64,000 nucleotides of DNA from Isoetes taiwanensis (Eukaryota > Streptophyta > Lycopodiopsida > Isoetales > Isoetaceae), in NCBI GenBank assembly GCA_021234155.1, contig JAJEKV010000010.1:6732871-6796870 (forward strand). Direction: 5' to 3'. Positions 818-56,267 of this stretch are shown here, in pieces (the stretch's first letter is position 1; each line of letters starts with the position of its first letter). The notes under the pieces are model-generated. The model was not told where the DNA came from, made no database searches, and saw nothing but the letters and a program-made list of their open reading frames with translations. The position numbers and the translations under genes are program-made.

Positions 818-869
818 AGAGTTACCTAGAGATCATATTTTTAAATTATGTTGACGTTCTTCATTCTTG

Positions 870-890: not shown

Positions 891-942
891 CCGTTTCCAT
901 TTCTTTTATCTCATACGTTATTGTTCTCCTTCTGAAAATGAT

Positions 943-1510: not shown

Positions 1511-1780
1511 ATCGGACGGGGAAATTGACAGGGGACCTTGAGAAAATCGTTCTAGAAAGGGAACTTTTTTATATATATGTATACAGAAATACACTTTCCA
1601 AAAAGTTTTGAATATAAAATATGCTTTACGAAAAGGTTTTGAATATATATTGTGTTCTTATATCAGCATTATTGGTTACATTAATGTTGTTGTTTTTATA
1701 TTATGTGTATGGTTTCTTTGTACTTGCAATAATTTGTATGTATATACTCGTCAATAATTTAGGTCTATAAATAGGTATGC

Positions 1781-2002: not shown

Positions 2003-2457
2003 TCGGCGGGGATCTCGGGGACCGCTTTGCATCGCTGGCGGCGATGAATCGGATTAGTTTTTAAGTTTATGTTCTATTATAATCGTTATTTATGTCAAGC
2101 AAATCGCGCCCCGCCTTCGATTTGAACCACGAAAAAATCTACGTTACGTAGCTACTTGCTTGCATTTATTTATTAAGTAAAAAGCATTACAATTTCAATG
2201 TTTAGATTTCGTTGTCGCTCGTGAATGTGCGAATTAATAAGCAATTCCCTGCTTTTTCTATTGCCAACATTCTGTCATAATATGGGTCATTTGCATCGGA
2301 TATTTGAATGCCTTTGCATTTTAACATAAAATGCATCTTCCTAGCCCGAAAATGAACACAGTGCAAAAGTGTGGTTAATTCAATATAATGGTCAATAAAA
2401 TGCTTATACGGCGCGATTTTGGAATAGACATAATCCCAATTTAATTGAATGATGGTT
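2003..2457. other. Non-coding tail of the left-edge element
   Basis: No gene seen. It holds a degenerate AAATCGCG palindrome at 2101-2123 and a half-site GGCGCGATTTT at 2410-2420. The 661-bp repeat R starts at 2458, so the element boundary is at or before that point. Confidence 0.5.
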
Positions 2458-21610: not shown

Positions 21611-22065
21611 CATCCAATATTTAATAAACAATAACTATAAAATGCCCCCTTTTTTTTTCTTGTTGAAGGAAAATGGCCTAGTTTCAAGGATGGACGGTCT
21701 ACATAAAATGCCCTAATTGAATCCCTAGATCTAACGGGCCACATCAAAAGCCCCAAATAAAGGGGGCTGCTTGGGGTTGATTGAAGTGTCACCGTCTGGA
21801 CCGTCCATCTCAGAGATGGACGGCCGAGATCAATCTTTACTAACAATTTCCTTGCACCTTCCTTAACCTAAAATCAAGGGCCACGATTTCTCACGTGCCC
21901 GATCGACGGCCCAGGGATGGGGTGCATGCCCCATCCATGCCCCATGCATGCCCCCCCCCCATCAAATCCAAGGGCTATTGTCGTGCCACCTCAAAAAATC
22001 GACGGCCAGGATGAATCTCTACACAACTTTCACCCCCCATAGGACCCATAATATAATTGTGTATA
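21611..22065 (+). repeat. Direct repeat D, left copy (about 455 bp)
   Basis: Matches about 26,705-27,124 in the same orientation at high identity. It contains an inverted pair ACCGTCCATCTC/GAGATGGACGG, a CATGCATG-rich stretch with a C run, and ends in TATATATA. No LTR ends (TG...CA) or primer-binding site were seen, so the class is unknown. Confidence 0.75.
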
Positions 22066-26704: not shown

Positions 26705-27124
26705 CATCCAATATTTAATAAACATTAAATATAAAATGCCCTAATTTCAGGATGGACGGTCTACATAAAAAGCCCCAATTGAATCCCTAGATCTAACGGG
26801 CCACATCAAAAGCCCCAAATAAAGGGGGCTGCTTGGGGTTGTTTGAAGTGTCACCGTCTGAACCGTCCATCTCAGAGATGGACGGCCGAGATCAATCTAT
26901 TAACAATTTCCTTGCACCTTCCTTAACCTTAAAATCAAGGGCCACGATTTCTCACGTGCCCGATCGACGGCCCAGGGATGGGGTGCATGCCCCATGCATG
27001 CTCCATGCATGCCCCCCATCAAATCCAAGGGCTATTGTCGCGACACCTCAGAAAATGGACGGCCGAGATGAATCTCTACCCACACTCAACCCCCCATAGG
27101 ACCCATAAAATAATTGTATATATA
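26705..27124 (+). repeat. Direct repeat D, right copy (about 420 bp)
   Basis: Same orientation as 21,611-22,065 with small indels. Together the two copies bracket the eIF2B-alpha and cyclin-D fragments. Confidence 0.75.
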
Positions 27125-34795: not shown

Positions 34796-35670
34796 GAACA
34801 CATGGTCATTTGGTCAAGCACATTGAAAATCAGAATTGTCCTTTAGGCATTATTAGGAGCACTGATTCAACTAGCATATATAATTGTAGGGTGATACGTT
34901 TGTTTTTGGGTGCCACGCATTCTGTAATCTATATAAATCATTGAGAGGTTTTGGTACTTTTCTCTTTGGGAATTTGGTTTGCTACTGTTACTAGCATGAT
35001 AAAGATTTGTGTTGTGCGGACGAATTTGAATTGCAGGTATTAATTCGTCCATCAGTTTTTAAGCAGTCTCCTCATCCAAATCCCCAAGAGTGTAACTCCA
35101 CCGACTGATAGAAATGGTTTATTGTTTTTCCCTATGTAAATTGTGCCAATATTGTCCACATTCCAGCATTTTTAAACTCTTCAAATGGCCAAACTAAAAA
35201 GATGCCAAATTTCATGTAATATTTACTTTAGTCAATCGTCATTCCTAATTTAAAACGAAGTGCATTATGTACTGCATGTGTAATAAGAGAACATAGCAAG
35301 TGTTTTCTTTTTCTTTTTTTGGATGAAAAGGAACTTTTAATTATTCAACAAAAAAAGGTACATATAAGTGTTGAGGCAAGCATGTCACTGCTTAGATAAA
35401 GGGTGTAACTCTGTTACCTTAAAATGTTCTCCAACAATGTTTAAATTGTCATTTATACAGAGACGATACAGAGATAAGCTAGACCCTTGCAAGCTAGAAA
35501 TGGGATAACAAGCAGCTATTTGTAGAGATGGCTACCACTTCCTTTTTGCAAGTAAAAAAGTTCTGTTAACGAATGCTATGGATCCATGATGGGGTTTAAG
35601 GCCCATTTTGCAAGCCCATAGTTGAGATCCTTTTTGACTTGATACAAAAATCTACTTTGTCGTGAGTTGG
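34796..35670. other. Non-coding DNA up to the hairpin terminus
   Basis: No gene recognised. It may include the 3' UTR of the BTB donor gene. Confidence 0.4.
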
Positions 35671-35720
35671 GTAAGAGAAATGTTCGCGGCGTCCTTGGCC
35701 GCCGCGATAAATTTCTTGTA
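35671..35720 (+). repeat. Hairpin terminus ending the bHLH/BTB segment
   Basis: GTAAGAGAAATGTTCGCGGCG, with an imperfect GC-rich stem against GGCCGCCGC, then GATAAATTTCTTGTA. It aligns over about 58 bases with 51,680-51,737 and has the same layout as the ends of units A and B. Confidence 0.75.
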
Positions 35721-35853
35721 TATATAAAGCAAATGCCATTTCTGTTTTATCCTAATATTTTTTCGCCAGCAAAAATTTTGGGGGCATTAGAGGTTTGGTG
35801 GAGTCTATTAACGCCCTTGTAAGCCATTCCCAAATTTGGATTTTAGTTGGTAC

Positions 35854-35925
35854 CCGAACCTGCAGGTATGGGCAAAAAGCCCCTACGAACCTCAACCGAA
35901 CCTCAGCCCTGGAGCAACCGAACCT
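35854..35925 (+). repeat. CCGAACCT motif cluster (three copies)
   Basis: CCGAACCT at 35,854, 35,896 and 35,918. Two further copies occur at 47,692 and 47,725, at the other side of the multigene region. Confidence 0.6.
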
Positions 35926-36038
35926 GGTAAACGTCATTATTACTTGTTGTTTTACTCATTACGCCTAAATCCCTCCTCCCCCCACCTTCCCACCGAACTG
36001 AAACTACAAGGAGTAGCTTCGAGCGGGACGCCTCAAGA

Positions 36039-36767
36039 ATGCCTCAATTGGGCGCCAAAGCTTTGGAGGGCATTTCGAATTTAGTTTTGATGTCAATCCT
36101 CGCCCAAATCCGAAGGAATTCTCTAGTTTTCCTTCGTATTTTGGCGAAGAATTGCATCAATTTGGTTGCTTGGACCGTGGAGCTCGGAAAGCGATCACGC
36201 CGACTCAATTCGATCTATGGCAGAGGTAACTGTTCTATTAATTTCGGCCAATGACAATGAGTAATTCTTTTTTGAATACAGAAACTGAAAGGCCAATTCC
36301 GGGTGGAGGTGCCCAAGAACTGCTTGCCCTACAAAAATCAATATAATCGGAAGGAACAGGTCGATGAGAATGCTCTTCGAGCTTCTGGTGCAATGAATAT
36401 TGATCTCTGGGCGTGGGGGAATCAGATCCCATCGATCCGATCACCAGAAGACATCCTGAATTTCATTCTCCATCGGGGCTTATTCATTTTGCCTGTAAGG
36501 GTAATCAAGGTCTGCTTGGCTATTGCAATAATATTTCAAGTAATTCCGATGTGCATTTGAGAACAATGTACAATCAATTGTGTGGAGTGCATTGCAATAT
36601 GGTAGCACATTGTAATTACCTCCAACAGTGTAACTATTTCTTAACCAACAGGTCTAAGAATACAGAAGAACTGCAAGCTTCCAATCAAAGGTTGCTTATG
36701 GAGGTGGAGTCACTTAAACAAGGATTGAAGAGATGCTCGAGGACAATGACAAACCGGAGAGGAAGTT
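36039..36767 (+). pseudogene. Unknown gene with coiled-coil C-terminus
   Basis: Open frames suggest exon 1 (about 36,030-36,225, donor GTAACT) and exon 2 (from about 36,282) with a segment VEVPKNCLPYKNQYNRKEQ. After a frame change near 36,490 comes a Cys-rich stretch and then a heptad-like helix (EELQASNQRLLMEVESLKQ). The splice junction does not keep frame. I do not recognise the protein. Confidence 0.35.
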
Positions 36768-37034
36768 AAAAAGACTGAAAAATGACACCACTTGGGCATG
36801 AGGGAGAGGAAAAAAAACCGAAGGCCCTAAATATACTTGCCCCTAGTGGTGGGGGCTTCAAGAAGGATCCACGCTATTAAAAATCTGTGGATCCTACTAT
36901 GGCTGAAAAGAAGAAGAGAAAAACCTTGTAATATGGCTAGTTTGTTGAAAAAAAGCTTGTAACTAAAGATGATGTTATAGATATGTTGAAGCTTCCCCGA
37001 GCTAACCATTTAAGAAAAGCTGCTTCTTTGAACA

Positions 37035-38842
37035 GTGCTTATTGAATTGGGAAAGAGTCAAAGTGCTGATAACATGCAAGAATTATGTGACAATGTGGGT
37101 ATCAATGACAAGCTTACATTGCTCTCTTTAGATGTTTGCGGGATGGTATCAAGCAAATGTGGTATTACGAAGACCATACCGCCAAGACTTCGCTTATGTC
37201 GAGCAAGCGTAACAAAGAGGAATGCGTAAGTACCACGAACATTTGGGAGAGATGTACCGATCACCACATCCGCGTGCACTTGGGATCACTAATCACTGGG
37301 AAAAGTAAGAAGAAGGGTGGCTCCGGAAATGATCTATTTGTTCTTAATGAGAAGAATAATTGTTGGATGGATCTCTCTAAAATGCTTCTTCTGTTAGTTC
37401 GCTTCTATGATATGAAAGTGGAAGAATGTGGAGGGAAACTCCAAATTGCTATAAAGTTGGATGAGATGGAACTGATCAAAGGTGAAAAGTATGAGAGGGT
37501 TTCTTTGACATTAATGAACAGTATGTTGTCAAATTCGATAATGAGGAAGGGAAGTTCTCTGTTCAATCGAGGGACCATATTTGGTGGATAGGGATATTTC
37601 AAGTACCGGAAGAAAATCATGGTGTTCTTCGTGGGTCTTTCAAATAGACACCTATTCCTACTATTATTGCTGCTCATGGAGTCCGGGAGAGAAGCTTCCG
37701 TGTTCCCCGGCTACGGAGATTACGAGGTTGAATGACATCCGGCTGATCTAAAGACCATCAAGTGCATGTATAACATGAAACATGGTTCGGTAAGACTACC
37801 CACGCATGTCCTTACTTGTTTGTATGCTAGGGTAGATGATAAGGGGAAGGGAATGAGTACTCTCGAATGTGACCGGATGCTTGAACCAACGCGAGAGAAG
37901 GAGGACAAAACTTTGATCCCCGTACTTGCAATTCCCGTGAAGAGAGTACATATTTGCACTCTCCATGCCTTTCTAAGAATAGTGGATAAGATGGTGTACA
38001 TGAGCATTCTTTTGCTTGGAATAAGTCTCCACAATCAGCCCGAGAAAAAGTGTATGAAAGATGTTGAGAACATGCTTTCCGATCTTGGTCTTCATGGTGG
38101 TGACTATAAAATCCTCGCAAGATCCTAAGAAGGGAGGCAAGGTTCCTTGTAAACCATCTATGGGTGGGGTGAAAGCGAAGAGATTTCTGCCTTGTACTAA
38201 ATTACGTAAGAATGGATCATTGCCAACTGGAAAGTGGGAGGGGTATAAGGACTTGCTGGAAGCAGAAGATGACCGTACTTCACGGGGGAGGGCAAAACTA
38301 AAGAAAATTAAAGCGTGGCGTAATCCGAAAGCAATCCGGTAACTTTGATGGCAGAGAAGAAAATGGTGGGTGGAAAGTTAGATGAATTCAGAGTAGCAGT
38401 AACTGAATTCACGAAGTCGTTTATACAAGCATGGGGAGAATGCAATGTCACACATTACATTCATATACTTCACGCCCATGGCTTGTGGTTTGCCAAAGAG
38501 TACGGGAGCTTGGGAATATGGAATACGCAGGGAATGGAGAAGTCACATAAGCAAGCCAAGAATGCTTTTTTCAGGTTCACACAACATCGAGGTTCGTGTG
38601 GTAACTCATTGCAACAGATGTGCCAATGGTTCTATAGAAGGATTATCTGCAAGCTAGAGAAAAAAGATAAAGCTAAACAAGACACGACGTTGGCTAGAAT
38701 ATTGAGGAGAAAAGTTGAGGAGGAAAAAAAGAAACGTATATGGTGTAGCTCTAGTGCAGCAAGACAAGTTAAAGGCAAAGTGGCGATCCACAAGGATCGG
38801 GGCGAGGGTAGAAGATATACTTACTGGGAATCAATTGTATGA
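37035..38842 (+). pseudogene. Transposase-like multi-piece gene relic
   Basis: Successive plus-strand frames look like one broken protein of about 550 residues: 37,136-37,591 (with KLDEMEL), 37,766-38,110 (with VHICTLHAFLRIVDKM and DLGLHGGDYKI), 38,100-38,340 (with KPSMGGVKAKRFLP) and 38,345-38,842 (with THYIHILHAHGLWFAKEYGS, then NTQGMEKSHKQAKNAF and a basic tail). The last part, a conserved Glu/His helix near the end of a HYIH-HG segment, is reminiscent of the RNase-H-fold end of DDE transposases, but I cannot assign a superfamily. At least three frameshifts are present. Palindromes begin 134 bases after its stop. Confidence 0.4.
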
Positions 38843-38975
38843 ATAAATTCATATTAATGTATAACTATTGACCATGATGTGCAACTATAATGTTTCAAAT
38901 ATGTTAGGTTGGCGGCGTGGGCGCGGTCTGCGAACTTAGTTGGTATTCAATTGCTTGAATGACAAGTATTATTAT

Positions 38976-39002
38976 GCACCGTGGGCCACGGTCGCGCGAA
39001 AT
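38976..39002. repeat. GCACCGTGG-type palindrome (imperfect)
   Basis: GCACCGTGGGCCACGG core with an extended CGCGCGAAAT right side. First of the series downstream of the transposase-like relic. Confidence 0.7.
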
Positions 39003-39034
39003 GAAGTTGGGAATTAGTTATAGATTAACTGCTA

Positions 39035-39058
39035 TTCGCACCGTGGCCACGGTGCGAA
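39035..39058. repeat. Perfect 24-bp palindrome
   Basis: TTCGCACCGTGG followed exactly by its reverse complement, no loop. This is the cleanest member of the family. Confidence 0.95.
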
Positions 39059-39090
39059 AGCATTTGGTTTCCGTGGCTATCTTTTGCCGT

Positions 39091-39112
39091 TTTCGCACGG
39101 TAGCAACGGTAC
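39091..39112. repeat. Degenerate GCACCGTGG-type palindrome
   Basis: TTTCGCACGGTAGCAACGGT, a decayed version 32 bases after the perfect copy. Confidence 0.55.
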
Positions 39113-39229
39113 TCTTTATATAATTATCTTTGTTATCGATGTTGTCTGCTTTTGATATTTGTTCTAAGTCATTACATTGCATATTTATCAATCTTGTCCA
39201 CTCATTTGTTGCATTACAGTTCAGAGACA

Positions 39230-40213
39230 ATGGCGCAGAATAGCGGTAATGCCGGATCTAACAATCCCAACAACCAAAGAACAGAAGAGAAGGCGCCTGC
39301 GGGCGCACATCATGGTGAAGACAAATGAGGGCAGCGCCACTAACTATGTCGGTGCTTCTAACAACCGAACGAGCACCGCCTTCCGAGCCGTAAAACATCC
39401 ATCAAGCGTGTCCGGACGCCGTAGTTCGAAATGTTGCCAATGACGCAGGGAGATTTTTTAGAGACATACCTTCCGAGCCAAGGCGTGTTTACCTTTCTCT
39501 TCTCGCCATTTAGTCGGAGAAGGAACCTTCGTGGTCGGTGCACCGTATGCGTCATGGAGTTCCCGTGTACTCGATGATTGCATCGCCGTTAACGCCGATG
39601 TGGTAGTTGCACCGCATTAACGGCGTTACTGTTCCTTCGATGGGAGCTGACACCTTGCTTGAGGCACTCCATTCCTTCGTTGTGTGGCACAGGTTGATGG
39701 CTTCTTTGACGCCAACTCCTAACTCATTCTCTGTACTGGCTAATGAGATAGATTACATAACCGGACTTCCTCGTAGAGTGCCGGAAGTTGGATTGGTGGA
39801 GATAAACCGGGGGCGGACTTGCTTGGAGCCGACAATGAGAATGCTAAGCCCCATGAGGATGACCATCGATGGATGTGCATGTCCAGATGTTCTGTTGGTG
39901 ATGTGCCCGTCGAAACGTTCCTATTGCTGTTCAAGCAGTTTTTGAACCCCTGAATATTATGTACTCGGGTGTCCCTTTCCAGGTCCCTATGACAGCTCAA
40001 TTAGAAGAAAATATCGTTCTACAAGAGGCAACTGCAGTACCTGTGACGGTTGTGCCTGAAACCATTGTACCGGAATCATGCATGAGTGGTTCCCGCGTGA
40101 TGAGCACTGTAGTCGTGGAATCCAAATAGACGTAAGAGGAAGACTAAGCCTAAGCAGCTGCAGAAGAAACAGGTTCTCTGCAAAGGCCCTCCTAAGTTGA
40201 ATAAGAAGGGCCA
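39230..40213 (+). pseudogene. Unknown nuclear-type protein relic with basic tail
   Basis: Starts ATGGCGCAGAATAGC (MAQNSGNAGSNNPNNQR). Coding-like pieces then follow in different frames: DAGRFFRDIPSEPRRVYL near 39,440, VPVETFLLLFKQFLNP near 39,900, VPFQVPMTAQLEENIVLQE near 39,975, and a Lys/Arg-rich end NPNRRKRKTKPKQLQKKQ at about 40,120-40,213 that would act as a nuclear localisation signal. No family recognised. It ends 20 bases before the histone-like ORF. Confidence 0.35.
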
Positions 40214-40233
40214 CCGCTTAATCAAAAGTTAAG

Positions 40234-40558
40234 ATGGATCGCGAAAAATCCGGCACTTCCGAACCACGTGGAGTGGGTGCTTCCAAGCTCACAATGGCTA
40301 GAATATGTAAGGAGGTGGTTCAGAGAGATACTGATAAGATGAAGAGGGATGGTGCAAGGTACCGGAGAGCTGGTTCTGATTTTCCAATGCCGAATCAGTG
40401 ACTCGATTCACTGCAGATGCCCTTGATGCTCGCGACGAGGGCCACCGAGAATCACATGGTCGTTTCTTCAAGACTGTGTGAAATGTGCTGTGCATTCCAA
40501 GAGAGTGACAATAATGAGGCAGGATATTGCCTTGACAAATTACTTCCGAGGCATGTAA
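40234..40558 (+). pseudogene. Divergent histone H3/CENH3-like gene, frameshifted
   Basis: ATG at 40,234 opens MDREKSGTSEPRGVGASKL, then MARICKEVV (compare the H3 alpha-1 pattern KLPFQRLVREI). The frame stops at 40,399. Immediately after, another frame reads RFTADALDA, a third reads ATENHMVV, and the last reads CAVHSKRVTIM and RQDIALTNYFRG to TAA at 40,556. Together these follow H3 alpha-2/alpha-3 in order: RF--AL-AL-EA-E, then CAIHAKRVTIM-KD--LAR. TADAL and an Arg after VTIM resemble centromeric CENH3 more than canonical H3 (Pro there). The N-terminal tail is short (about 20 residues versus about 45) and the alpha-1/alpha-2 loop is longer. About 108 residues in total. Two or three frameshifts may be real or sequence errors. 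Confidence 0.6.
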
Positions 40559-40650
40559 AGTGTTTTATATTAATGAAACGATCTTTGTTGTATATTTTGT
40601 TTGCTTGCTAAGTTTTTTGATTGTATCTATTCTCTATGTGTACTTACAAT

Positions 40651-40787
40651 GCACCGTTGCCACGGTGCGAAATGGGTATAAATTACTTTGTGAGGGAGGT
40701 ATTTTCGCACCGTGACCATGGTGCGAAATTCCTGTAAGTTACTGTGTGAGGGCATGCAATTTCGCACCGTGGCCACTGTGCGAAATT
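40651..40787. repeat. Tandem array of three palindromes with similar spacers
   Basis: Palindromes at 40,651-40,673, 40,703-40,729 and 40,758-40,787, spaced 52-55 bases. The two spacers are related to each other (TTACT-TGTGAGGG in both), so the repeating unit is about 54 bp. Located 93 bases after the histone-like stop codon. Confidence 0.85.
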
Positions 40788-41177
40788 GAATCATTCCATA
40801 GAAGGTGAACCACAAGATCAAAGTGAGCATATTAACATGTTAGAGAATATATTAACATATTAGAGAACATTTAGAGAACGGCAAGTAATGGAATTATGTC
40901 CAAGTAACCTTCCCCTAGGTTTCTAACCCCTTCCCCTTCCCTCATGAGGTCTAACCCATGCATCTGGGTTAGGAGTCAAGAGCTCACGCTCCTCCCAGCC
41001 TGATTCTTCCCACCATATGGGGTACCTAGTCATTAGAAAAAGTAATTCCACAGGATGATGCAGGGTTGTAGTACACCCTAATAAGGCCATACATCTGTCC
41101 CCGGTTAATTTCATGAATGAACTCTGATATGTATACATCCAGAGAGTGTGCTAAATATCCAGCACGAAGAAGAGGCC
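40788..41177. other. Non-coding DNA
   Basis: No gene or structured repeat seen apart from a small C/T-rich patch near 40,907-41,010. Confidence 0.4.
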
Positions 41178-41474
41178 TCAATTGTTTGTAGCATCTCGTC
41201 CCGGATAAGGAGGGGGTTCAAGAAGTCCCCTCATTGCAAGTCTCCTATAACATTCAGATGGATTAATTTCCATCAGTGGCTCATGACCACAATCAAATCG
41301 CTCCAGAATGAAGTTGATCAACTCCATTGTAAGCTCCTTGGTGGGACTGTGGCGCAACCTCCACTCCAAGAAATGGTCCCATAGCTCATCCATTCCAGGC
41401 CGCACAGAATGCCTGGGGCATGCTTGCAGGCCTTCTGGAGTGGCCCAGGGAGGATTCGGTCCAATCATTTGCAA
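41178..41474 (-). CDS. Unknown ORF, paralog 1
   Basis: A 98-residue minus-strand frame with PPWATPEGLQAC, DELWDHFLEWRLRHSPTKE, NFILERFDCGHEPL and LLEPPPYPGRD. The same motif order appears in decayed form at 42,283-42,735. The family is unknown. Upstream lies a purine-rich low-complexity tract, as in its paralog. Confidence 0.5.
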   Translation of the reverse strand: MQMIGPNPPWATPEGLQACPRHSVRPGMDELWDHFLEWRLRHSPTKELTMELINFILERFDCGHEPLMEINPSECYRRLAMRGLLEPPPYPGRDATNN

Positions 41475-41477
41475 AGA

Positions 41478-41720
41478 GCACGAAGATTAAGTATCAAAGA
41501 ACAAGGAGCACGAAGATCAAGTAGCAAGGAGCATCAAGATCAAGTAGCAAGAAGCAAGGATCAAGGACGATCAAGGAGCAAGAAGTTCAAAAAAGAAGGA
41601 AGATCATGGAGCAAGAAAGTAAGGAACAAGATCAAGTAGCAAGATCAAGAGCAAGGAACAAGATGAAGTAGCGAAGAACAAACATCAAGATCAAGTGGCA
41701 AGGAACAAGGAAGACCAAAG
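41478..41720 (+). repeat. AAG/GATCAAG-rich low-complexity tract
   Basis: Degenerate repeats of units like AAGATCAAGTAGCAAGGAGC upstream (minus-strand sense) of paralog 1. A comparable GGAGCAGACAAGAAATTAGT tract occurs at 42,745-42,940. Confidence 0.8.
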
Positions 41721-41890
41721 ACCAAAGGTGAGAAGTGAAAGCAAGCTGAAAGAATTTATAGCTACGAATCCAATAATGTTGAAGTATAATACTAATACTG
41801 TTGAAGTATAATACCAAGAATGATGAAGAATAATACCAATAATGCTGAAGTATTTTACCATTCGGTGGTTGTAAGAAAACGGGATCTGCG

Positions 41891-41920
41891 TATTTCGCAC
41901 CGTAGCCACGGTGCGAAATA
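41891..41920. repeat. 30-bp near-perfect palindrome
   Basis: TATTTCGCACCGTAG against CCACGGTGCGAAATA; one mismatched pair at the centre. Confidence 0.95.
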
Positions 41921-42282
41921 GGCACTTCAATAATTTGTAAATGAAGCGATTTCAAGACCGCGTGGCTCTGATTGCCAAATATGACCACAAATAGAACAAT
42001 CACATGAAAAAATACAAGGAAAATGGTAGAAGATATTACTTAATTACTTAATTGCACGAAAATCACTTAATTACACGAAGATGTAACTTAATTACACGAA
42101 ACTCACTTGCTTATATATTTAATTTCTATGAAAATCTAGTTTATACACATATTCCAATGGAGTATCTTCACCGTGATATGTATGTATTATGTGTCTTGTG
42201 TGCTATGTAGCCATAGGTCACGTGTATCCCAAGGAATTGTATCCCGTGGGGGAATCTAGACAAGAACCACGGGATGTTGAAG
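41921..42282. other. Non-coding AT-rich DNA
   Basis: Short TTAATTACACGAA-type repeats occur around 42,040-42,110. No gene seen. Confidence 0.4.
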
Positions 42283-42735
42283 TCAAGGAACGGAATAGGA
42301 GCTTACCAATATCCACAAAAGATTTGTAATGGAAGTTGTAAAGTTCAATGAGGATATAAATCCTATTCTTCTCACTAGTAGGAATGACCGGAGGCGATCT
42401 TGATCCGTAGAGTAGGCCATGAAACCATGGAAAAGCATGTCCTTCAACCGTTCTAGCCTATCTTCTAAATCGAGGGGGTTCAAGAAGTCCCAAAGCACTT
42501 AGATTGAACCTTGCCTCGACTTCGAAGTGATCTCCTCCAAAGGAGGGAGATGACGAGTATAGCGATCGATAATGAAGTTGCTCACCTGCCCTTGCAAGCT
42601 CTGCGGGTTGGACCGTGACGCCATCGATGCTCCCAAAAGTTGCTAAAAAAATCATCAAAAGTGCACGTATTTCTGCCGCACGCTTGCAGGTATTCCGGAT
42701 CAGCCCAGCGAGGATGTTCTTGCAAAGTTACCATT
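42283..42735 (-). pseudogene. Unknown ORF, paralog 2 (frameshifted)
   Basis: Minus-strand pieces HPRWADPEYLQACGR, FWEHRWRHGPTR, then SNFIIDRYTRHLPPLEEI and VLWDFLNPLDLEDRLERLKD follow the same order as paralog 1, in two frames with a stop between. This indicates tandem duplication of one gene followed by decay. Confidence 0.5.
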
Positions 42736-42744
42736 TGCAAGAAA

Positions 42745-42940
42745 TTAGTGGAGCAGAAGAGAAATTAGTGGAGCAGACAGGGAGGCAAGGAGCAGACAAG
42801 AAATTAGTGGATCGGACAAGAAATTAGTGGAGCGTATTGGGGAGGCAAGGAGCGGACAAAAGAGGCGCATAAAGAGGGGAAAGAGGCAAAGAAGCGCATA
42901 AGAAGCGGACAAAGAGGCAAGGAGCAAACAAGAAGCAAAG
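42745..42940 (+). repeat. GAAATTAGTGGAGCAGACAAG-type low-complexity tract
   Basis: Imperfect tandem units (AGACAAGAAATTAGTGGA and GGAGGCAAGGAGC) directly upstream of paralog 2 in its own orientation. Confidence 0.8.
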
Positions 42941-43191
42941 ACAATGATAGACAGTGAAGGCATAGATGCCTATTTAAAGAGAAATTAGGTATATATGCCA
43001 TTATACGAGTGCCATACAAGTATGTATATAATCCAATAATTTCTATGTATATCACGATCAATAATTTTGGTGCGTACATACCATCAATAATTTTGGTGGG
43101 TATAAATATACATCAAATTGCCGAAAGTCGCGACAACATTGGCCATGTGGCCTCCTCCTCACAGTCCTGAGCGTGATTCCATCACCGCAAG

Positions 43192-43503
43192 ATGAATCAC
43201 GAAAACTTCAAGCAGTGTCGCGAGCGAGAAATACCAATGGAAGACTGGATGACCACTGCCGCTCTCAATCCTCGCTATTATCCTGATCCCTTCGATGTTA
43301 TCATCCATCTAATATGGAATAGAGAGCATCAAATGTACATGATAGAAAAAAGATCACTGGGGTGCTCGGTGACAATGACTCGAAGAGTCCCCCTAAATCA
43401 ATACTTGTCATCCGGATCATATTGTCAATACTTATTTGAAGAGTTCATGATCGTGTATTTTTTGTACATTATGCTCGTATATATAACCAATAATGCTTTC
43501 TGA
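43192..43503 (+). CDS. Conserved unknown ORF with PDPFDV-IHLIWN motif
   Basis: A 103-residue frame: MNHENFKQ, then MEDWMTTAALNPRYYPDPFD, then VIIHLIWN, then a basic middle and hydrophobic end. Homologous to the relic at 1,781-2,002. A further coding-like frame downstream at about 43,672-43,846 (VIHLHRVPGVHVYEINRI) may be its continuation or a related unit. Family unknown. Confidence 0.45.
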   Translation: MNHENFKQCREREIPMEDWMTTAALNPRYYPDPFDVIIHLIWNREHQMYMIEKRSLGCSVTMTRRVPLNQYLSSGSYCQYLFEEFMIVYFLYIMLVYITNNAF

Positions 43504-44104
43504 TTGCATGTCAATAATTTTGTTCGATATAAGTACAACTCCATTCATTCAATTAGGAGAAGGCATCCATTTGCTATGTCTCGGCACGGTTATTCTTATT
43601 ACTGGGGGGTCTACCTTCCCTATAGACTCCATTACTTGCACTATGAAATATAATGATCTTTATAGATGTTCTCGAGGGGTATCCCCTTGATTCCCGGGCT
43701 GAAAGGGGTAGCGAGAGGGTCGAAATCATTCTTCCAACGGGTTTATCGTGTTGTTATCCACCTTCATCGGGTTCCGGGCGTCCACGTCTATGAGATTAAT
43801 CGCATCACTCAACTTGCTGCTCATGATGATCCCGATTGCGAATGATCTTCTGCATTTATGTATGTTATGCCTCTTATATGAGTTCTAAATTCTGTTACTA
43901 GAATATTTCAGACATTCTCTAGTTATAAGTATGTAACCATAAGAGATAGAAACATATGATCCATCTATTTACCGCACATTTTCAATTTGGAAAGCTCTTG
44001 GCCATTTTCCTTACATGTAGATTCTAAATTCAGATAAGCATTCTCTTCGCAGTGTGTGTAGTCACGGTCTTGAAATTGCACACTCCAAAGACGTTGGAAT
44101 CTGC

Positions 44105-44136
44105 TATTTTTCGCCGGTGGCGGCGGTCGCGAAATA
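44105..44136. repeat. TCGCCGG-variant palindrome
   Basis: TATTTTTCGCCGGTGGCGGC core with a CGCGAAATA right end. It sits between convergent ORFs. Confidence 0.7.
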
Positions 44137-44163
44137 GACCTTTCCACATAATGTGGAATAGTC

Positions 44164-44188
44164 ATTTCGCCGCGTACGCGTGCGAATA
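44164..44188. repeat. CGCGTACGCG palindrome
   Basis: ATTTCGC, then CGCGTACGCG, then TGCGAAT; 28 bases after the preceding palindrome. Confidence 0.75.
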
Positions 44189-44220
44189 TTTGTTAGTTGT
44201 AAGCCGCGGACAACCGGGTC

Positions 44221-44243
44221 TTCGCACCGTGGCCACGGTGCAA
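44221..44243. repeat. GCACCGTGG-type palindrome
   Basis: TTCGCACCGTGG against CCACGGTGCAA, nearly identical to the perfect copy at 39,035. Confidence 0.9.
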
Positions 44244-44354
44244 GTAAAATAGAAGCGTAAAACAAATTAAAATGAAACTGAAGTTTATGTTCGATATAAC
44301 AAGAATAGTTTATGTTCAAACAAGTCTTTGCATTAATTGACAATGGTTACAACT

Positions 44355-45911
44355 TCATTTTCTTAGAAACATGTAAGTCATCGGACACTTCGACTTCTTC
44401 CAATTCGGACTCTGCAGACCAAACCGATCCAACGGTACATAAAGGCGAGGAATGCTGGGCTCCCTCTCTTCCCAAGTCAGTCGAATTGGAGCCTTATCCA
44501 CGCCGGACAAGGCCAATGCAGCTCTACTGGCAGCCATAGAATACATACTAAAGCCACCAAAAATATGCGTGGCGATATCTCTCCTAACAGCCACTACTCG
44601 ATCAGAATTGGCAGATAATGGGATGTGATTACCAATCAACGAGAGGGCCTTGAGTTTCAAGACCTCTTCTGGTCCATATGGGCTGTACTTAGAATGGAAC
44701 ACAACGATCTCTCCCTTATAAAGGTAGCCCATATAGTGGGTGATACTTGCATCTCTGCCAAGGGTAACTCTGTCATGTCTGGCGCAAAAATCATCCACAA
44801 AAATCTCCTGCGCAATAAACAATCGTTCTTAGGCACTTAACAAAATAAGCAAACTTATGGTAGCTTACCTCCACTTCATCAGATGCAATAACCTCTTTGG
44901 TAGAAATGTTGATGGACGACCTTGAAGAGCTTGATTCGCTCTTTGATACTTGTTTTGCACTATCCTTTTTAGCTTCTGATGTACTCGCCTCGAACTTTAC
45001 TTCTGAGACTTCAAGCCCATTTCTGCCATCTCTAGAACTCTATCAAAAGCATTCTCAGGAGCTATTGAAGTTCCATCATAAGTTAAGAGATCGTGCAGGT
45101 CCCTAGGCATTTCAGGCTCGAAGTCAATGAAGTCGTCTAGACCAACAACGAAAGCATAGATTTGTCCAAGGACCTCATCTTCCCTCAAACCAGTAATGGA
45201 AGATATATCGTGGAGAAGAAGATAGTCCTTCCCTCCTATGTTAACTGGCAAGGCTTCCGTGACACCCCATCTATCAAGATTCTCTTCATGCTCGTCTACG
45301 TCTTCATCCTCGTCCTCGTCGAGCTTTTCCACCAGTTCCTTCTCTTTCTCTGCATCAAATACCTCCTCTACAGGTGACTGAGGTTCTGCAATAGCCTTCA
45401 CCTGTGGTTCTTCCCTATCTGTTGGTGGAACCGTATATATCATGTAAGTAGCAAACATGATGTCAACTGGATATAAATTATCCTTCCCATCCTTCTCACA
45501 TAAGTCGGCTGGCAGTCTCTTGAACGACCTTCGAACCTTATCTTGGTCACCTTTGGGAAAAAGCTTCAGAAAGGACTTTAGACTCAATACAATCTTCCCA
45601 GTCGAGGGAGAAGGACGCGCTTCAGTTTCTGCCACGGCCATGAAACCATGAATGTACTGACCATACACGTCACTGTGTTTGTTAGCCTCAGAGATTATAT
45701 CTACCGTTAGGCAGAAGTTATTGTAGACTACAGTGGCGTCTACCGGGTTTTCAGGCTGTTGAGCGAACTCATCTGGGTGTGACGGCCCGATACTCGCTTC
45801 CTTCCCGACGATCCGGTCATACCATGCACGAACTGTTCCCAAGCTTTCTCGACTGCCGTTTGACATTGCGGAATTGTAGCCCTCCTTTAGTGCAATAAAA
45901 ACCTGATCGCC
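44355..45911 (-). pseudogene. Two-exon gene for an acidic-region protein of unknown function
   Basis: Exon 1 runs from an AG acceptor near 45,911 (or an internal ATG at 45,866, MSNGSRESLGTVRAWYDRIV) to a GT donor at 44,868. Exon 2 runs from 44,807 (EIFVDDFCARHDRVTLGRD) to a stop at 44,355. The intron is 61 bp with GTAAGC and GCGCAG ends. Features are a folded N-terminal region with VYGQYIHGFMAVAETEARPS, a Glu/Asp-rich linker around residues 200-225 of exon 1, a Ser-rich segment before the donor, and a compact exon 2 domain with GFSMYSMAASRAALALSG. A single-base frameshift near 45,010 breaks exon 1. The exon structure is convincing; no family recognised. Palindromes lie just beyond both ends. 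Confidence 0.5.
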
Positions 45912-45983
45912 TAAAAGTAAGTGCACATGAAATGACGCGGCCTTGAAACTAAAATGTCTTAAGTGTCCCGGCGAAATATGTAT

Positions 45984-46204
45984 GCGCCGCGGGCTACCGC
46001 GGTGCGAAACAAATATAAACCCCAAAGACAACAATAAGGTATTATTACGGGGCTGGCCCGCGGTCGCGATATTTTGCCGAAAAAAGAAGGCCAAATTTAT
46101 GTTAATCGCAAAACATACTACCGCGGTAGCCCGCGGTCGCGAAAACTACACAACACGACTACACGAACTCCACATATTTCGCCCGACGGTGGCCCGCGGT
46201 GCTA
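45984..46204. repeat. Cluster of four CCGCGG-variant palindromes
   Basis: Palindromes at 45,984-46,009, 46,047-46,070, 46,118-46,144 and 46,177-46,204, spaced 59-71 bases. They carry the shared TTTCGC/GCGAAA shoulders but have CCGCGG-containing cores, a sub-family distinct from the GCACCGTGG type. Confidence 0.75.
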
Positions 46205-46281
46205 TCTTTGCAAAAAGGATATAAGTTATTGGCAAACAACACCGGGATTTGAACCCAAGAACACCATTGTTATTTATTTGT

Positions 46282-47424
46282 TTAACTGTTTTCACTTAAA
46301 GAAAGTACAACAGGGAGGCATCTGAGCTTTGTTGTATACAATTCTTCCCTACGTTTTCCTACCTTGACACCATCCACCAAAAAATGGAAGACGTTTAAGT
46401 CACATTCTGATTCCAAAATAATTCTTACATCAAATAAAGACCATGCTTCTTCGACTTTTAAAGTTTTAAACAATTGACCACTTTTGAAGATAGCAATGTC
46501 AATGACCATGAGAATGGGTACCATCGGCGCATCGCCTTGTTCCACTTTGGAACCCACGTCCATCTGCTCCCTTCTTTTACTTCCCTCCATCTTACGTATT
46601 TGAAGGTAATGTAAATCGTTTGCTTTCGAATACAATACCCGATTCGACGCTTTCTTTCTTTATCACCTTTGTACCTTCTCAACTCCTTCATGCGAGGCGG
46701 GATGACCATTCATCACATAAAATGTCATCCAGAAACAACTGACAATCACTTACAGTAAACATTTTTGAAGTCTTCTTGACATTCTTGACATTCTTAAACA
46801 AGGTAATAAACATATCGATGGGTACATTTACTTTCACGTGTCCACGACTCCACCTTTCTCCTTCAAAGCACCGAAAATTTCTGTGACAATTTCAGCTTGG
46901 CAAGAAACAGAGAACTGGAATCCATTGGGCGGAACTAAGCCGTGATAATGGGGGCAATGGTAAGTCCACAATTTTGCCTTTCAGGATAATACTCATATTT
47001 TAAGAACCAAATCCCCCTTTCCCAAGGTACGCACTTCGTTTGACCTTCAAAAAGCAAGGATCCAATATCATAATAGAAAGCACGGAAGATGCTTGTGATA
47101 GAACTTCGATGGTTCCAGTCCAAAGACATCGAAATCTGAGCCACGAGATACCGAAACCCAATTAGTTGATTTCTTCAAAATATAATGAATGACATTAGCA
47201 CGGATATAATGAAACTCACAATTCACACGAAGCTCAGGGAAATTACGTCGAGATCTTATTTTTTCTTTTCTCATGTCTGTCGGTGTGTATAGGTGTCTGA
47301 CCTTGATATATACTTCCCCTCTCACCTCGAACCCGACAACAATAGCCTTCCAATGGCTTGAAATAACATTTCTCCTGCCTTTGATCACCTGATGAGGACC
47401 TCTGAGTGGCGGTCGGATTGTCAC
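46282..47424 (-). pseudogene. Coding-like relic, possibly BAH-domain related
   Basis: Minus-strand frames from 47,424 leftward: KAIVVGFEVRGEVYIKVRHL, YTPTDMRKEK, ELRVNCEFHYIRANVIH, then after frame changes FEGQTKCVPWERGIWFLKYE, and at 46,282-46,635 FDVRIILESECDLNVFHFL. The VYIKVRHLYTP...EL----HYI-AN-I pattern is similar to BAH domains (VRW-YRPE-T...EL--S-HYD---A-TI), but the match is only by eye. Broken by at least two frameshifts. Confidence 0.3.
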
Positions 47425-49333
47425 GAAGCTCCCAAGAAATATATTGAAGCGGCGAAATCGTTCTCACCGTGGCCAGGTAATCGCCATCTGAAATGAACCG
47501 GCAAATTAATTAGATCAAACAGTTTGAATCAGATGAGCTCGCAGAACTAGAAGGATTGAAAGCATTAGCAAACCTGGATGGAGAGACGCGAAAAGAAGAG
47601 CCGTTGAGGGGGGGGGGGGTACTTATAGACACCCCAACATTTGGGCGGTAATTCAGGGCGGGAATAATTTGTAATTATTACTTCCCGCCCACCGAACCTC
47701 CAGGGCAGGTAGGTAAGGATAATGCCGAACCTGTATCTTGACGACACCTGGCATGGGAAGGGAGGCATGGATGAAGAAAAGCCTGTACCCCCCCGAATTC
47801 TCATTGGTCGCGCGATTTCCATGCTGGCATCGAGCTTGGGACAATAAGTGAACCCAAAAAAACTCTAATGCGACACGTGTCTTTAAAAAATAATAAATGA
47901 AAAAAAAAAAGAAATGACGTCCCTTTCTTGCTCTGCAAGCAATCCGGCCCTGCAGAGAAGCAATCCAGCCCTGCTCAATATGCAGAATCATGTGATAGAT
48001 CTTTGGTAAAGGTCCTGGCTGGACAACGCTGCTGGCTATGGAGAGTCGGAGCTGGGAAGGCCTCTGTAATTTCTCTGCTACATGGAATCTCCGTTTTCAG
48101 GTAAGAAGAGATTACAGAAGTCTAAAATAGCATTTCTATGAGTATATGGGCTTTTGACCCTTAATTTTTGGCAATCTTCTCTTTATCAGCATTGGTTGGA
48201 AACAGATAAAGTTGCATGATCGCATTGCACGATCGCATCAGCACTCTAATTTCGCAGCTTCTTCATGCATTGAAGCAGAGTCACGAAGCTCTCCAGGTAA
48301 CCCGAGTGTCCCACAAAGCAGAAAACGAAGAGAGGAAAAAATGTTCTGTTATGGACTAGACTCGTCTATTATGTCTCATCTAGCCAACCTATCTCACTTT
48401 TTTCTTCCATTATTGAGCCTGATCGAACCATTTCTTCTTCTGTCATAGCCATTCATGCTTCCTGGCTTTGCCTTCTATCTATATCTCTGTATTAATGCAT
48501 CAATCAGTGGGTCTGTCCTTATTTGTAGTTAAAATTGTTAGCAAGGCACCGGTTTCGAGTTTGAATCATTTGGCAAATGACAAGCAAAACGCATTTTCCC
48601 GGCAGAGAGCAACAAGTAAGGAAAACCCAATTCTCCGCTGCTTTATACAGTGAAATAGTACCCTTTTCTGCTTGTGATTCTGCTGGCTATGGTGGGCTCC
48701 AAGCCCAAAGGCCTTAGACCTAAACACGTATCATGATTTGCCTTCTTTTTACTGTGTTTTCTTTGTAGAACCACTGGACGTTGAATACAGTATTGTTATA
48801 TGCATTTAAGTGGTAGAGCCGTCTGTTAACTTCTTCTTCTAATGTAAAGCTTTTGTTTTCTTCCTTTCTTGGGTTTTTCCAGGTCCATCTGGTGCTGAGG
48901 CGACAGTAGGTGGAGCTTTGCCCTGTTTATTCAAATCTTAAAGCCCCATCACTTTTGGCCTCCGTTTTTTCCAAAGTGGGTACTGGCCTTATCCTTTTGC
49001 AAGATGATAGGCCTACCGCCTATCGCATGGAGTTTTACTGGTGGATTTGAGCTTCTTCGTAGTACCCACTTGGTAGTATGAAGACTCATCCTTTTGCTTT
49101 CTTTCAGTTTGGTTTCAAAGCAGATGGTCACGTTTTTCCTGCTGGTTTACAATTGGAATCAGATTATAGCAAAGAAGAGGGATAAACAGTCCAATCAGCG
49201 CCAAATAGAACACAAGAAAGCATTCTCTACATCAACACAGTTTGGACTAAGAAGTTTAACTTGGCAGATGCAGAGATTCTCATACCTTTGAAATAAGGTT
49301 ATATTAGTTGGTGTCATAGTACAAGACTCTGAA
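47425..49333. other. Non-coding DNA at the right end of the multigene element
   Basis: Contains CCGAACCT at 47,692 and 47,725, a G run at 47,608-47,619 and a decayed TCACCGTGGCCAGG half-palindrome near 47,463. From about 47,950 onward no element-specific sequence is seen. No gene recognised. Confidence 0.4.
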
Positions 49334-49570: not shown

Positions 49571-51689
49571 AACTGGAGGAAACGGCTGAGGATGATGATT
49601 CAACTGAGTTAGATCCAACAGAAGGTTCAACTTTGTCTAGGCCAATTGAAGGTCCCACTTCTAATGGCGAACAAGCCTCATGCCCACTTTATCCGCTCTT
49701 CAAGCTCAACTGATATTTCTCTTTGATTTTCACATCGATTTTGTACCTTAATAGGGTTTGAAACATATGTAACCAGGAAATTAGTAAATAATAGCGTAAA
49801 TATAATGGCGAGGTCTCAAGTTTTACTGACAGAGAAAAGTTCATTACCTTCAGCGGTCTTGGACTACTTCAGATAGAGACTCTATTTAAATTGTGGGGCA
49901 AGCTAAACACTAGTGCCCCAGTATGCGTTCTACTGGTAAACGTGTTTTTTGGGGCAGAGCATATAAAGCTGATGCAATGCTAGAGGTGGGCATTGCAGGG
50001 TCATTGGTTTGTTCTGAACTATTTTCAACACAACATTCATAAGGGGGAATAACTACGAGTCACAAAATCTTGTTGCAAAGGGAATGAATTTTATTTGTCC
50101 AAATGGGAAAGATGTATATGAAAAAATTAAATATTCATATTACGTGCCTATTTTCGAAGCGTAAGAAACTGACAATGTATTCCATTTCAACTGGGGTATC
50201 TGGGGCTTTTGCTTTTGCACTTGAGCGTCTACAGAAGACATGGTAGTTCTCTAGCTGTAGTCTGTAGTCTGTTGTTTCCTTTCCTTTATTCAAATGGATG
50301 ATGTTGAGTCTTTTGCTTCCAAGCTTCAAAAAATCGCTTCCAAACAGGGTTCTTCAAGCCGTTTAGGGTTATCTTAGGCCATCTTCTCACAAACGATGCT
50401 AAACAATGCTATGGCGGCAGGCACTTCTGGGTTATTCTGGGTTCTTCTTCAACTCGCACTTCTGCCATCATAGACATCTGGCCATAGAATTCAAGCCCTT
50501 CCCTGGCCTCTGCCATAGCCAGAAGCTCTCAGTACTAAGTTCTTTCTAAGCTATTATTCTGAGTATATTGTGAACCAGATTTACTGTTGTCTAGAGCAGG
50601 AAGAAGCAAGGCGGTCAGCTCCATGTCTCTTCTAGAAAATGCGGCATCTCCATGTTTCTGAAGGCAACATCTTGATATCACAAACTAGCCGTTAACAAGA
50701 GTCTTTGTGTTGCTTCTCTTATGTCGGATGCAGGTAGCATGTCAGAGCTTTGGACCCTTGGCCAACGGAGGATCTGTAATTGGTGATTTGAAGGTACTAT
50801 AATTTGTTAAAATCTCTTTTTGCTGATATTTGAAGCATAAGCATAAATTTTCTTAGGTGATATCTGAAGCTAATGTCTACTAGTTATGGGCTCCAGTTCC
50901 ACCAAACCATTGTGATCAACGGGTGCAAACAATTTCTGCTGATACCTTGAAAATAAAGAATGCATACCTTGCTTCATTGCCACCATTGGTAATTCTAGTC
51001 CCGATTTCTTATTCTAAGCACGACGATTTGCTACTTTTGTTGCTTATTGAACTTCTCTATAGGGTAGAGGTTATTCTGTCATTCTGTCCGATATGACAAT
51101 AAGATAGCAGGATGACAATAAGATAGAACTTGTGAACATCAATATTCATGTATTTTTTATAGTTGCCAAAATGCCCTAGCGCCCAGCAGTGGACACAAAG
51201 AGAATTACACCGTTGTGTCCCCTTCAGAATTAATTCTTTTGAAGTGAAACACCACTTAGTCTATTATACAAAACATGAAGGCGCTTTCACTGAGAAACTT
51301 TGCTATTGCTCCTATGGCATGCACTTTGTTAATCTCGAAATTGCTTTTGAATGGTCTTGAAAATTGTCTATTACTTGAATAATTTGAGAATTTAAGCCCA
51401 TGCAAGCAGAGAAAGAATTGAACTGCAAGCTCAACAATGCCTTCATTCGGACATCTAAATCATCTCCAGGGTAAAGCGCAGAGCCAGAATCCATCTTTGT
51501 AGTGCAAACATTACTTAGTTTGATCTCAAAAAATGCGATTTCGAAGAAAAATTTGTAACTTTTTCACCTTGGTAGAATAGCAGGGATGTTGCACATTAGG
51601 CCATTTGTTATAAGCAACAGTCCCACATGTTATTGGATTATCTATCAAATGATCCGAATAAGGTTATGAGTGTATACAACAGGTTGGGA
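49571..51689 (+). other. Mostly non-coding DNA with two unassigned exon-like pieces
   Basis: At about 50,735-50,797, between TGCAG and GTACTA, the frame reads VACQSFGPLANGGSVIGDLK. At about 50,884-50,990 it reads WAPVPPNHCDQRVQTISADT and ends before GTAATT. Both look like short exons of one gene, not recognised. The rest shows nothing. Confidence 0.35.
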
Positions 51690-51737
51690 AAGAGAAACGT
51701 TCGCGGCGGCCTTGGCCGCCGCGATAAGTTTCTTGTA
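51690..51737 (+). repeat. Hairpin terminus ending the DUF630 segment
   Basis: AAGAGAAACGTTCGCGGCGGCC, perfect GCGGCGGCC-TT-GGCCGCCGC stem, then GATAAGTTTCTTGTA. It aligns with 35,671-35,720. The LINE of unit B starts only 42 bases to the right. Confidence 0.8.
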
Positions 51738-51763
51738 GTTTTAATGGAAACAAGTGACAACAA

Positions 51764-55300: not shown

Positions 55301-56267
55301 TCTATTACTAAAATTCCAAAGATTTTTGGATAAATAAAACCTGTCATGAAGGCAAAGGGTGGGATCACTTCTCTTGTCCGTCCAGCTATAGGAGTTGGGC
55401 TTGGTTCTGGCCAAGGTGAGATTATAACTGTTGATAAGATTACCCCATGCTTTCTTTTCTTGAGCTCCCAAAGGCCTGTAATTCTTATTTTTCATAAATT
55501 CATTAGTAACCATGTTGAGGTCTCCCCCAAGAATGCACTCATCAAATTCAATATTATCTAGACTATTCTTAACTCTATTCCAAATACCTATCCTATCACC
55601 TGGATTGTTAAAGGCATAAATATTAACTAAGGCAATCCTAATACCAAGCAAGGTACATAATAAAATCTGCCATCTTCCTTCCCTGCCATTAACCATGTAT
55701 TTATCGGAAAAATTAAGGTTGTCCTTCCAGGCTATAGCTATCCCTGCAGAGGAGTCATTAGCAGGAATAGACCATAAATCATAACCAGGAGGAAGGGTCT
55801 TACCAATCATTATCTGGTGATTGGAGTCGTGAATTTTGTGCTCTTGAAAGAAAATGATATCAGGGAGAAGGGTAGATAAGCAAACCTTTAACCTATCCCT
55901 CTTAACACAATTATTGATCCCCTGGAGATTCCAGTAAGGCAATCCTAATACCAAGCAAGGTACATAATAAAATCTGCCATCTTCCTTCCCTGCCATTAAC
56001 CATGTATTTATCGGAAAAATTAAGGTTGTCCTTCCAGGCTATAGCTATCCCTGCAGAGGAGTCATTAGCAGGAATAGACCATAAATCATAACCAGGAGGA
56101 AGGGTCTTACCAATCATTACCTGGTGATTGGAGTCGTGAATTTTGTGCTCTTGAAAGAAAATGATATCAGGGAGAAGGGTAGATAAGCAAACCTTTAACC
56201 TATCCCTCTTAACACAATTATTGATCCCCTAGAGATTCCAGGTAACATAGTTAATTCTTCTATCCAT
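52332..56267 (-). pseudogene. LINE ORF2: endonuclease, reverse transcriptase, zinc knuckle (broken)
   Basis: The endonuclease begins near 56,267 but the first copy of the duplicated segment has a stop (WNL-stop-GIN). The intact copy restarts at about 55,940 and shows FFQEHKIHDSNHQ, LGGDLNMV and SDHYPQQLVIS. Reverse transcriptase motifs follow: KTPGPDGLPVEFF, LIALIPKVDMPASFSDYRP, SQAAYLKDRFILDN, LLKLDFTKAFDTISW and GVKQGCPLAPFLF. The frame shifts near 53,960, after which FADDTFIML (catalytic F-A-D-D) appears in the 53,710-53,970 frame. A CPRC...H....C zinc-binding segment (zf-RVT) lies at about 52,600. Later pieces are in three frames. Plant L1-type architecture. Confidence 0.9.
55628..56241. 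repeat. 307-bp tandem duplication inside LINE ORF2
   Basis: 55,628-55,934 and 55,935-56,241 are near-identical adjacent copies covering the start of the endonuclease domain. The whole of unit A's remaining ORF2 lies within this repeat unit, so whether A ever had the duplication cannot be told. Confidence 0.9.

What the first reader, a model, noticed from the sequence alone, without database searches (positions are those of the whole stretch)
38976..46204. Family of GC-rich palindromes punctuating a multigene element
At least 14 palindromes of 22-32 bp share TTTCGC/GCGAAA shoulders around cores such as GCACCGTGGCCACGGTGC. They occur at 38,976, 39,035 (perfect 24 bp), 39,091, 40,651, 40,703, 40,758, 41,891, 44,105, 44,164, 44,221, 45,984, 46,047, 46,118 and 46,177. 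All fall outside the reading frames I consider plausible: after the transposase-like relic, after the histone-like gene, between convergent ORFs, and beyond the start of the acidic-protein gene. Large DNA viruses (Mimivirus and relatives, Pandoravirus) are known to use palindromic hairpins as transcript 3'-end signals. Plant transposons can instead use repeated palindromes as transposase-binding sites. Which applies here is open.
Basis: partly seen in the sequence, partly recalled or inferred. Interest (0 to 1): 0.85.

Follow-up and report, generated by a model that had tools for sequence, protein, structure and literature searches.

The report
Palindrome arrays between transposon genes
A 12-kilobase jumping gene in what looks like a plant genome carries seven gene regions, among them relics of a RAG1-like transposase and a histone H3, and separates most of them with clusters of one palindrome at a fixed 57-base spacing, which look like docking sites for a protein rather than random hairpins.

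Summary
The palindromes are real, but only 6 of the 14 listed are close to the core in this copy; the other 8 are degenerate here, and 7 of those align with intact palindromes in sister copies. They belong to a 12.1-kb DNA transposon (35,785-47,870) with many copies in a 1.66-Gb genome. It has seven gene regions: a transposase relic whose predicted fold matches RAG1/Transib, an H3-like gene and five unknown genes. The core has 377 exact copies. Neighbours sit exactly 57 bp apart (76 of 104 pairs) although spacers are nearly unrelated. Clusters fill 48 of 52 gaps that contain a gene 3' end, 0 of 11 divergent gaps and 0 of 16 terminal stretches, across rearranged gene orders. Arms show no excess of compensatory changes; palindromic CpGs decay at half the usual rate; a related family has its own palindrome, partly in an intron, without one ruler. 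Best reading: phased docking arrays for a dimeric DNA-binding protein that insulate genes and/or counter silencing, working like VANC targets. The binder is unknown; nothing was tested at the bench. A transcript-end role remains possible.

The parts
35785..47870 (+). whole element, 12.1 kb, short terminal inverted repeat CATTAGAG...CTCTAATG
   Evidence: sharp borders of homology in sister copies; no convincing target duplication in 7 copies
36791..38842 (+). RAG1/Transib-like transposase, broken relic in this copy
   Evidence: tblastn; fold of a sister copy
38911..39112 (.). palindrome cluster s1 (one good and three degenerate members here)
39230..40558 (+). histone H3-like gene with long N-terminal part, frames broken in this copy
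   Evidence: tblastn; Pfam Histone in sister copies
40647..40788 (.). palindrome cluster s2, three members
40947..41405 (-). g3, unknown protein, paralogue of g4 (range of the match)
41891..41920 (.). palindrome cluster s3, one member here, two in several sisters
42173..42764 (-). g4, unknown protein (range of the match)
43192..43503 (+). g5, unknown protein; the gap g4-g5 is divergent and has no palindrome
44104..44245 (.). palindrome cluster s4, one good and two degenerate members here
44355..45866 (-). g6, acidic unknown protein, frame broken here
45984..46204 (.). palindrome cluster s5, four degenerate members here, intact in sisters
46282..47424 (-). g7, unknown protein, broken here

Best explanation
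The palindromes are cis-acting docking sites, in phased arrays, for a dimeric sequence-specific DNA-binding protein, most likely encoded by the transposon family. Each palindrome binds one dimer. The 57-bp ruler sets neighbouring dimers at a fixed distance and rotation. The arrays stand wherever a transcription unit ends inside the element; there they probably insulate or terminate transcription between tightly packed genes on both strands and keep noncoding DNA free of methylation, as VANC proteins do in Arabidopsis VANDAL elements. Shown here: membership of a multicopy element, the ruler, the gap rule, no excess of arm covariation, slower CpG decay. Inferred: protein binding, the dimer, who encodes it, insulation and anti-silencing.
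For: 57 bp in 76 of 104 adjacent pairs and in 36 of 50 listed exact pairs genome-wide, with spacers in 12 families of near-random mutual identity, 0.320 against 0.301 +- 0.009 shuffled. Palindromes in 24 of 27 tandem and 24 of 25 convergent gaps, 0 of 11 divergent gaps and 0 of 16 terminal stretches, in at least three gene orders. 370 one-arm changes and 13 complementary double changes against 20.2 expected. CpG transitions between copies 84/560 in palindromes, 978/3086 in coding matches, 146/473 nearby, 430/1252 elsewhere, while other substitutions are not lower. A related element family has a different palindrome, three to six of them in an intron in three loci.
Against: No binder is known and no gene of the element has a recognised DNA-binding domain other than the histone fold and the transposase. 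Copies are related, so counts overstate independence. The related family has no single ruler: 34 bp in 6, 73 in 4, 42 and 55 in 2 each of 20 pairs. One homologous spacer of this family keeps 68 bp (12 of 50). Spacers are slightly more alike than shuffles. The set was found by similarity to the core, which under-samples doubly changed arms. The strict 3'-end rule fits termination as well as docking.
Confidence: 0.6

Rival explanations
1. The palindromes act in RNA: a transcript hairpin at each gene end directs 3' cleavage or termination, usable from both strands, as in Mimiviridae.
For: Clusters lie at gene 3' ends in 48 of 52 non-divergent gaps and 0 of 11 divergent ones; one palindrome folds at -16.5 kcal/mol as RNA, three cluster stretches fold 6 to 10 standard deviations below shuffles.
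Against: Base-exact 57-bp spacing has no role in this reading; no excess of compensatory arm changes; the related family has palindromes in an intron.
Confidence: 0.17
2. They are binding sites through which the transposase recognises the element for movement.
For: They are kept in a short 4.4-kb copy (C222) that has 16 of them and mere gene fragments.
Against: 0 of 16 terminal stretches hold one; no likeness to the terminal repeats was seen by eye.
Confidence: 0.08
3. An independent tiny foldback repeat or a neutral tandem repeat that spread within the elements.
For: Cluster size varies from 1 to 16; one cluster scores as a tandem repeat; gapped single linkage merged 88 of 104 spacers.
Against: 20 of 20 non-window places mapped are in element copies or fragments; the same gaps are filled in rearranged elements; spacing kept while spacer sequence is not.
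Confidence: 0.07
4. They are recombination joints by which gene modules are inverted and moved between elements.
For: The H3-like gene changes place and orientation between gene orders, always with clusters beside it; g4 is 97% identical between subfamilies whose H3 is 40% identical.
Against: Could be a side effect of any repeat; explains neither the ruler nor the CpG pattern.
Confidence: 0.05

Closest known systems
VANC target motifs of Arabidopsis VANDAL (MULE) transposons (PMC5735166: abstract, part 1 of Results and section 9 read; PMC10398659: abstract)
   Same: Short motifs, often in tandem repeats, in noncoding DNA (introns, intergenic, terminal) of multigene plant DNA transposons, diverging between families; bound by an element-encoded protein that removes silencing.
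   Different: VANC21 motif is a 9-base non-palindrome without a described ruler; VANDAL transposases are MULE type (recalled); here terminal stretches are free of sites and no VANC homologue was seen.
Hairpin 3'-end signals of Mimiviridae (PMC4402537: abstract and outline)
   Same: Palindromes at gene ends.
   Different: Those work in the RNA of cytoplasmic viruses with viral enzymes; here base-exact spacing, no arm covariation, and intronic sites in the related family.
Inverted repeats at yeast poly(A) sites with low nucleosome occupancy (PMC6420913: abstract and outline)
   Same: Inverted repeats near transcript ends.
   Different: Those are AT-rich, diverse host sequences; here one GC-rich sequence of one element family in arrays.
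Subterminal repeats of CACTA/En-Spm elements (recalled)
   Same: Repeated short protein-binding sites in a plant DNA transposon.
   Different: Those cluster next to the ends; these are internal and absent from the terminal stretches.
RAG-like and Transib transposons (PMC9435367: main text read)
   Same: Fold of the transposase.
   Different: TIR starts CATTAGAG, no 5-bp target duplication seen, seven gene regions including an H3-like one, no RAG2-like gene recognised.

Membership tests
RAG1/Transib transposase superfamily | RAG1-type catalytic fold | tested here: met
RAG1/Transib transposase superfamily | three catalytic acidic residues | tested here: inconclusive
   Conserved D, D and a later E in GMEKSH in the alignment; not mapped residue by residue on RAG1, and the folded row is frame-shifted at the last site
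RAG1/Transib transposase superfamily | recognisable by sequence | tested here: inconclusive
   Pfam RAG1 E 0.0019, 16.8 bits below the cut-off of 25, in one relative only; profile against PDB gave no hit to E 10
RAG1/Transib transposase superfamily | 5-bp target duplication | tested here: not met
   0 of 7 copies with both ends has more than 3 of 5 bases alike
VANDAL/VANC anti-silencing system | motif arrays in noncoding parts of the element | tested here: met
VANDAL/VANC anti-silencing system | VANC protein homologue | tested here: inconclusive
   no VANC-type domain reported by Pfam in the ORF pieces scanned; genes are fragmentary
VANDAL/VANC anti-silencing system | loss of methylation on binding | not testable with these tools
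   only an indirect sign, slower CpG decay
Giant-virus 3'-end hairpin signals | palindrome at gene 3' ends | tested here: met
   48 of 52 non-divergent gaps, 0 of 11 divergent
Giant-virus 3'-end hairpin signals | stem kept by compensatory changes, as an RNA function would favour | tested here: not met
   13 complementary double changes against 20.2 expected; outside the search core (positions 1-4) 12 against 13.1
CACTA subterminal repeats | sites next to the element ends | tested here: not met
   0 of 16 terminal stretches
Histone H3 | H3-type histone fold by sequence | tested here: met
   Pfam Histone 1.3e-18 and 2.6e-14; best solved relatives are named H3

The most novel reading that the evidence does not exclude
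Several lineages of plant multigene transposons with unrelated transposases (a RAG1-like one here, a DUF7869-bearing one next door) share an operating kit: family-specific palindromes set in arrays in their noncoding DNA, and shuffled helper genes. In the RAG1-like lineage the transposon's own histone H3 is loaded at these arrays to build element-private chromatin that insulates its genes and escapes host silencing.
Probability: 0.12. Interest if true: 0.93.

Novelty: new variant of a known kind. Interest (0 to 1): 0.77.

Why it matters
Transposon-encoded proteins that dock on private motif arrays to undo silencing are described for Arabidopsis VANDAL elements. An unrelated element with palindromic arrays on a base-exact ruler, placed by gene ends, would suggest that such systems arose more than once. 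It would also give a testable link between insulation, termination and silencing. A histone H3-like gene together with a RAG1-like transposase in one multigene transposon is surprising in itself and raises the question of element-private chromatin and of RAG relatives in plants.

Tried and rejected
Chance: rejected. Prokaryote matches: the 18-mer occurs in 112 stretches of the prokaryote collection, 80 of them listed, in many unrelated genomes; taken as chance and not followed. Foldback repeat: disfavoured. RNA stem: tested by arm changes, not supported. Gapped single-linkage clustering merged 88 of 104 spacers into one family, which looked like common descent; ungapped average linkage on the 76 spacers at 57 bp gave 12 families with mutual identity only 0.02 above shuffles. 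I trust the second, but a faint common origin is not excluded. Fold of g3/g4: failed, pLDDT 38.7. Protein searches for the H3-like fusion: no hit at E 1e-8 or 1e-3; normal H3 is too short to be a candidate there. dN/dS of the H3-like gene within the window's own subfamily is 0.70-1.05 in three pairs, so current copies look little constrained; only the comparison between subfamilies is low. Papers: ten searches were made; the listed titles and abstracts showed nothing on transposon-encoded H3 or such arrays; lists were cut at 20 or fewer rows, and subscription papers and most preprints are not held. Scrambled palindromes in some copies (window, C3, C268, C479) may be base-calling errors at hairpins or real decay; not resolved. 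A genome census of terminal repeats did not complete by the tool.
Full report
Observation. The window lies in a 1.66-Gb genome (G000, contig 908). The core GCACCGTGGCCACGGTGC has 6 matches with up to 3 mismatches in the window and none in 100 shuffles. Alignments of the five clusters with 6 to 9 sister loci each show a palindrome with 0-1 mismatch in some sister at 7 of the 8 degenerate places; at 39,091 most sisters share the degenerate form. Genome-wide there are 377 exact copies, the reversed control 0.

The element. Twenty stretches around other copies were fetched. Homology to the window starts sharply at 35,785 and stops at about 47,870. The ends form a short inverted repeat, CATTAGAG...CTCTAATG. 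A divergent copy of about 4.4 kb (L020) has longer terminal repeats of the same type. Seven copies with both ends show no convincing target duplication; one sits in a TGG repeat and one has 3 of 3 bases, which chance can give.

The ruler. In 21 loci, window included, there are 164 palindromes with up to 4 mismatches; of 104 adjacent pairs up to 130 bp apart, 76 are exactly 57 bp; 68 bp (5) and 56 bp (4) come next. A genome-wide search for exact pairs with free gap 22-52 (spacing 38-68) found 116 pairs, control 0; of the 50 distinct places listed, 36 have 57, 12 have 68 (the limit of the search) and 2 have 56 bp (counted by hand). All 12 at 68 bp share one spacer. The 57-bp spacers fall into 12 families barely more alike than shuffles (0.320 against 0.301 +- 0.009). 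A distance kept while the sequence between is free points to proteins bound on DNA.

The gap rule. Genes and palindromes were mapped in 21 loci: the window and 20 places taken from the roughly 50 listed sites of 377. Counting gaps of 20-1500 bp between adjacent genes with matches of at least 150 bp (others dropped), 24 of 27 tandem and 24 of 25 convergent gaps hold a recognisable palindrome, and 0 of 11 divergent gaps do. In the four exceptions (C479 transposase-H3, C3 g6-g7, window g6-g7, C590 H3-g3) the alignments show degraded palindromes. None of 16 terminal stretches between an element end and the first gene match or fetched border holds one (7 left, 9 right). The rule survives rearrangement: the H3-like gene stands between transposase and g3 in one gene order and inverted between g5 and g6 in another; in a third the transposase meets g4 directly, with palindromes between. 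Copies are related, so counts overstate independence. By junction type, 11 non-divergent types have palindromes in at least one copy, and the single divergent type has none.

RNA or DNA. One palindrome can fold strongly as RNA (-16.5 kcal/mol). But among 116 distinct 26-mers changes are mostly one-armed (370), with 13 complementary double changes against 20.2 expected by independence and 10 other double changes. The search by core under-samples double changes in the core; at the four positions outside it the count is 12 against 13.1. CpG transitions between seven copies are 0.150 in palindromes against 0.31-0.34 elsewhere, while other substitutions are 0.064 against 0.046-0.058. So it is the CpGs that are kept or protected. 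This suits occupancy or low methylation, with the caveat that recognisable palindromes were chosen in one member of each pair and the pairs are not independent.

A second family. The window starts inside another multigene element whose upstream part was fetched. It carries a DUF7869 gene (Pfam 1.1e-10), a g5 homologue (47% identity, E 1e-11) and a different palindrome, AAATCGCGCCTGGCGCGATTT, found 302 times forward and 311 reverse genome-wide. In three loci of this family (L148; L150, which overlaps L151; L157) three, five and six palindromes lie between two coding pieces that are contiguous in the protein, in L148 bounded by GT and AG; that this is an intron is inferred without RNA. Its spacings vary (34 bp in 6, 73 in 4, others 1-2 each of 20), so it has no single ruler. 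A family-specific palindrome with a similar half-site (TCGCGCC against TCGCACC, by eye) thus recurs, and not only at 3' ends.

Reading. I take the palindromes as phased docking sites of a dimeric protein. What bound arrays do is inferred from position: between packed genes they may stop or insulate transcription, which would also reduce double-stranded RNA from convergent genes, and they may keep DNA unmethylated. The nearest working parallel is VANC in VANDAL elements, which binds motif arrays in noncoding DNA and removes silencing (PMC5735166, parts read; PMC10398659, abstract). This is a likeness of working, not membership: transposase and motif differ and no VANC homologue was seen. The transcript-end reading keeps 0.17.

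Novelty. None of the listed results of the paper searches describes a transposon-encoded H3 or such arrays; the held library is partial and lists were capped. I score it a new variant of a known kind, with a bolder reading given separately.

Noticed in passing
window 1-2420 and L148: Second multigene element with a DUF7869 gene, its own palindrome AAATCGCGCCTGGCGCGATTT (302+311 genome hits), a g5 homologue and palindromes in a likely intron; an ORF piece at about 943-1158 resembles a HAD/FCP1-type phosphatase (by eye, no Pfam hit).
   Followed up: partly
window 39230-40558; L019:8488-9890; L147:2-1063: A transposon-borne histone H3-like gene with a long N-terminal part, in two different places and orientations between subfamilies.
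   Followed up: partly
window 35666-35733 and 51683-51750: 68-bp direct repeat pair (87% identical) with the palindrome TCGCGGCGGCCTTGGCCGCCGCGA; the left copy ends about 50 bp before the element.
   Followed up: no
window 21801-21823 and 26863-26885: Two identical perfect palindromes CCGTCCATCTCAGAGATGGACGG about 5 kb apart.
   Followed up: no
window 55628-56241: Tandem pair of 307 bp, 99% identical.
   Followed up: no
window 44104-46204; L014; L021; L011: Short indels and GC-rich scrambling confined to palindromes in some copies while flanks are clean: base-calling artefact at hairpins or real hypermutation.
   Followed up: partly
L019 against L005 (g4) and L008 (H3): g4 is 97% identical between subfamilies whose H3 is only 40% identical, a sign of gene exchange between elements.
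   Followed up: no
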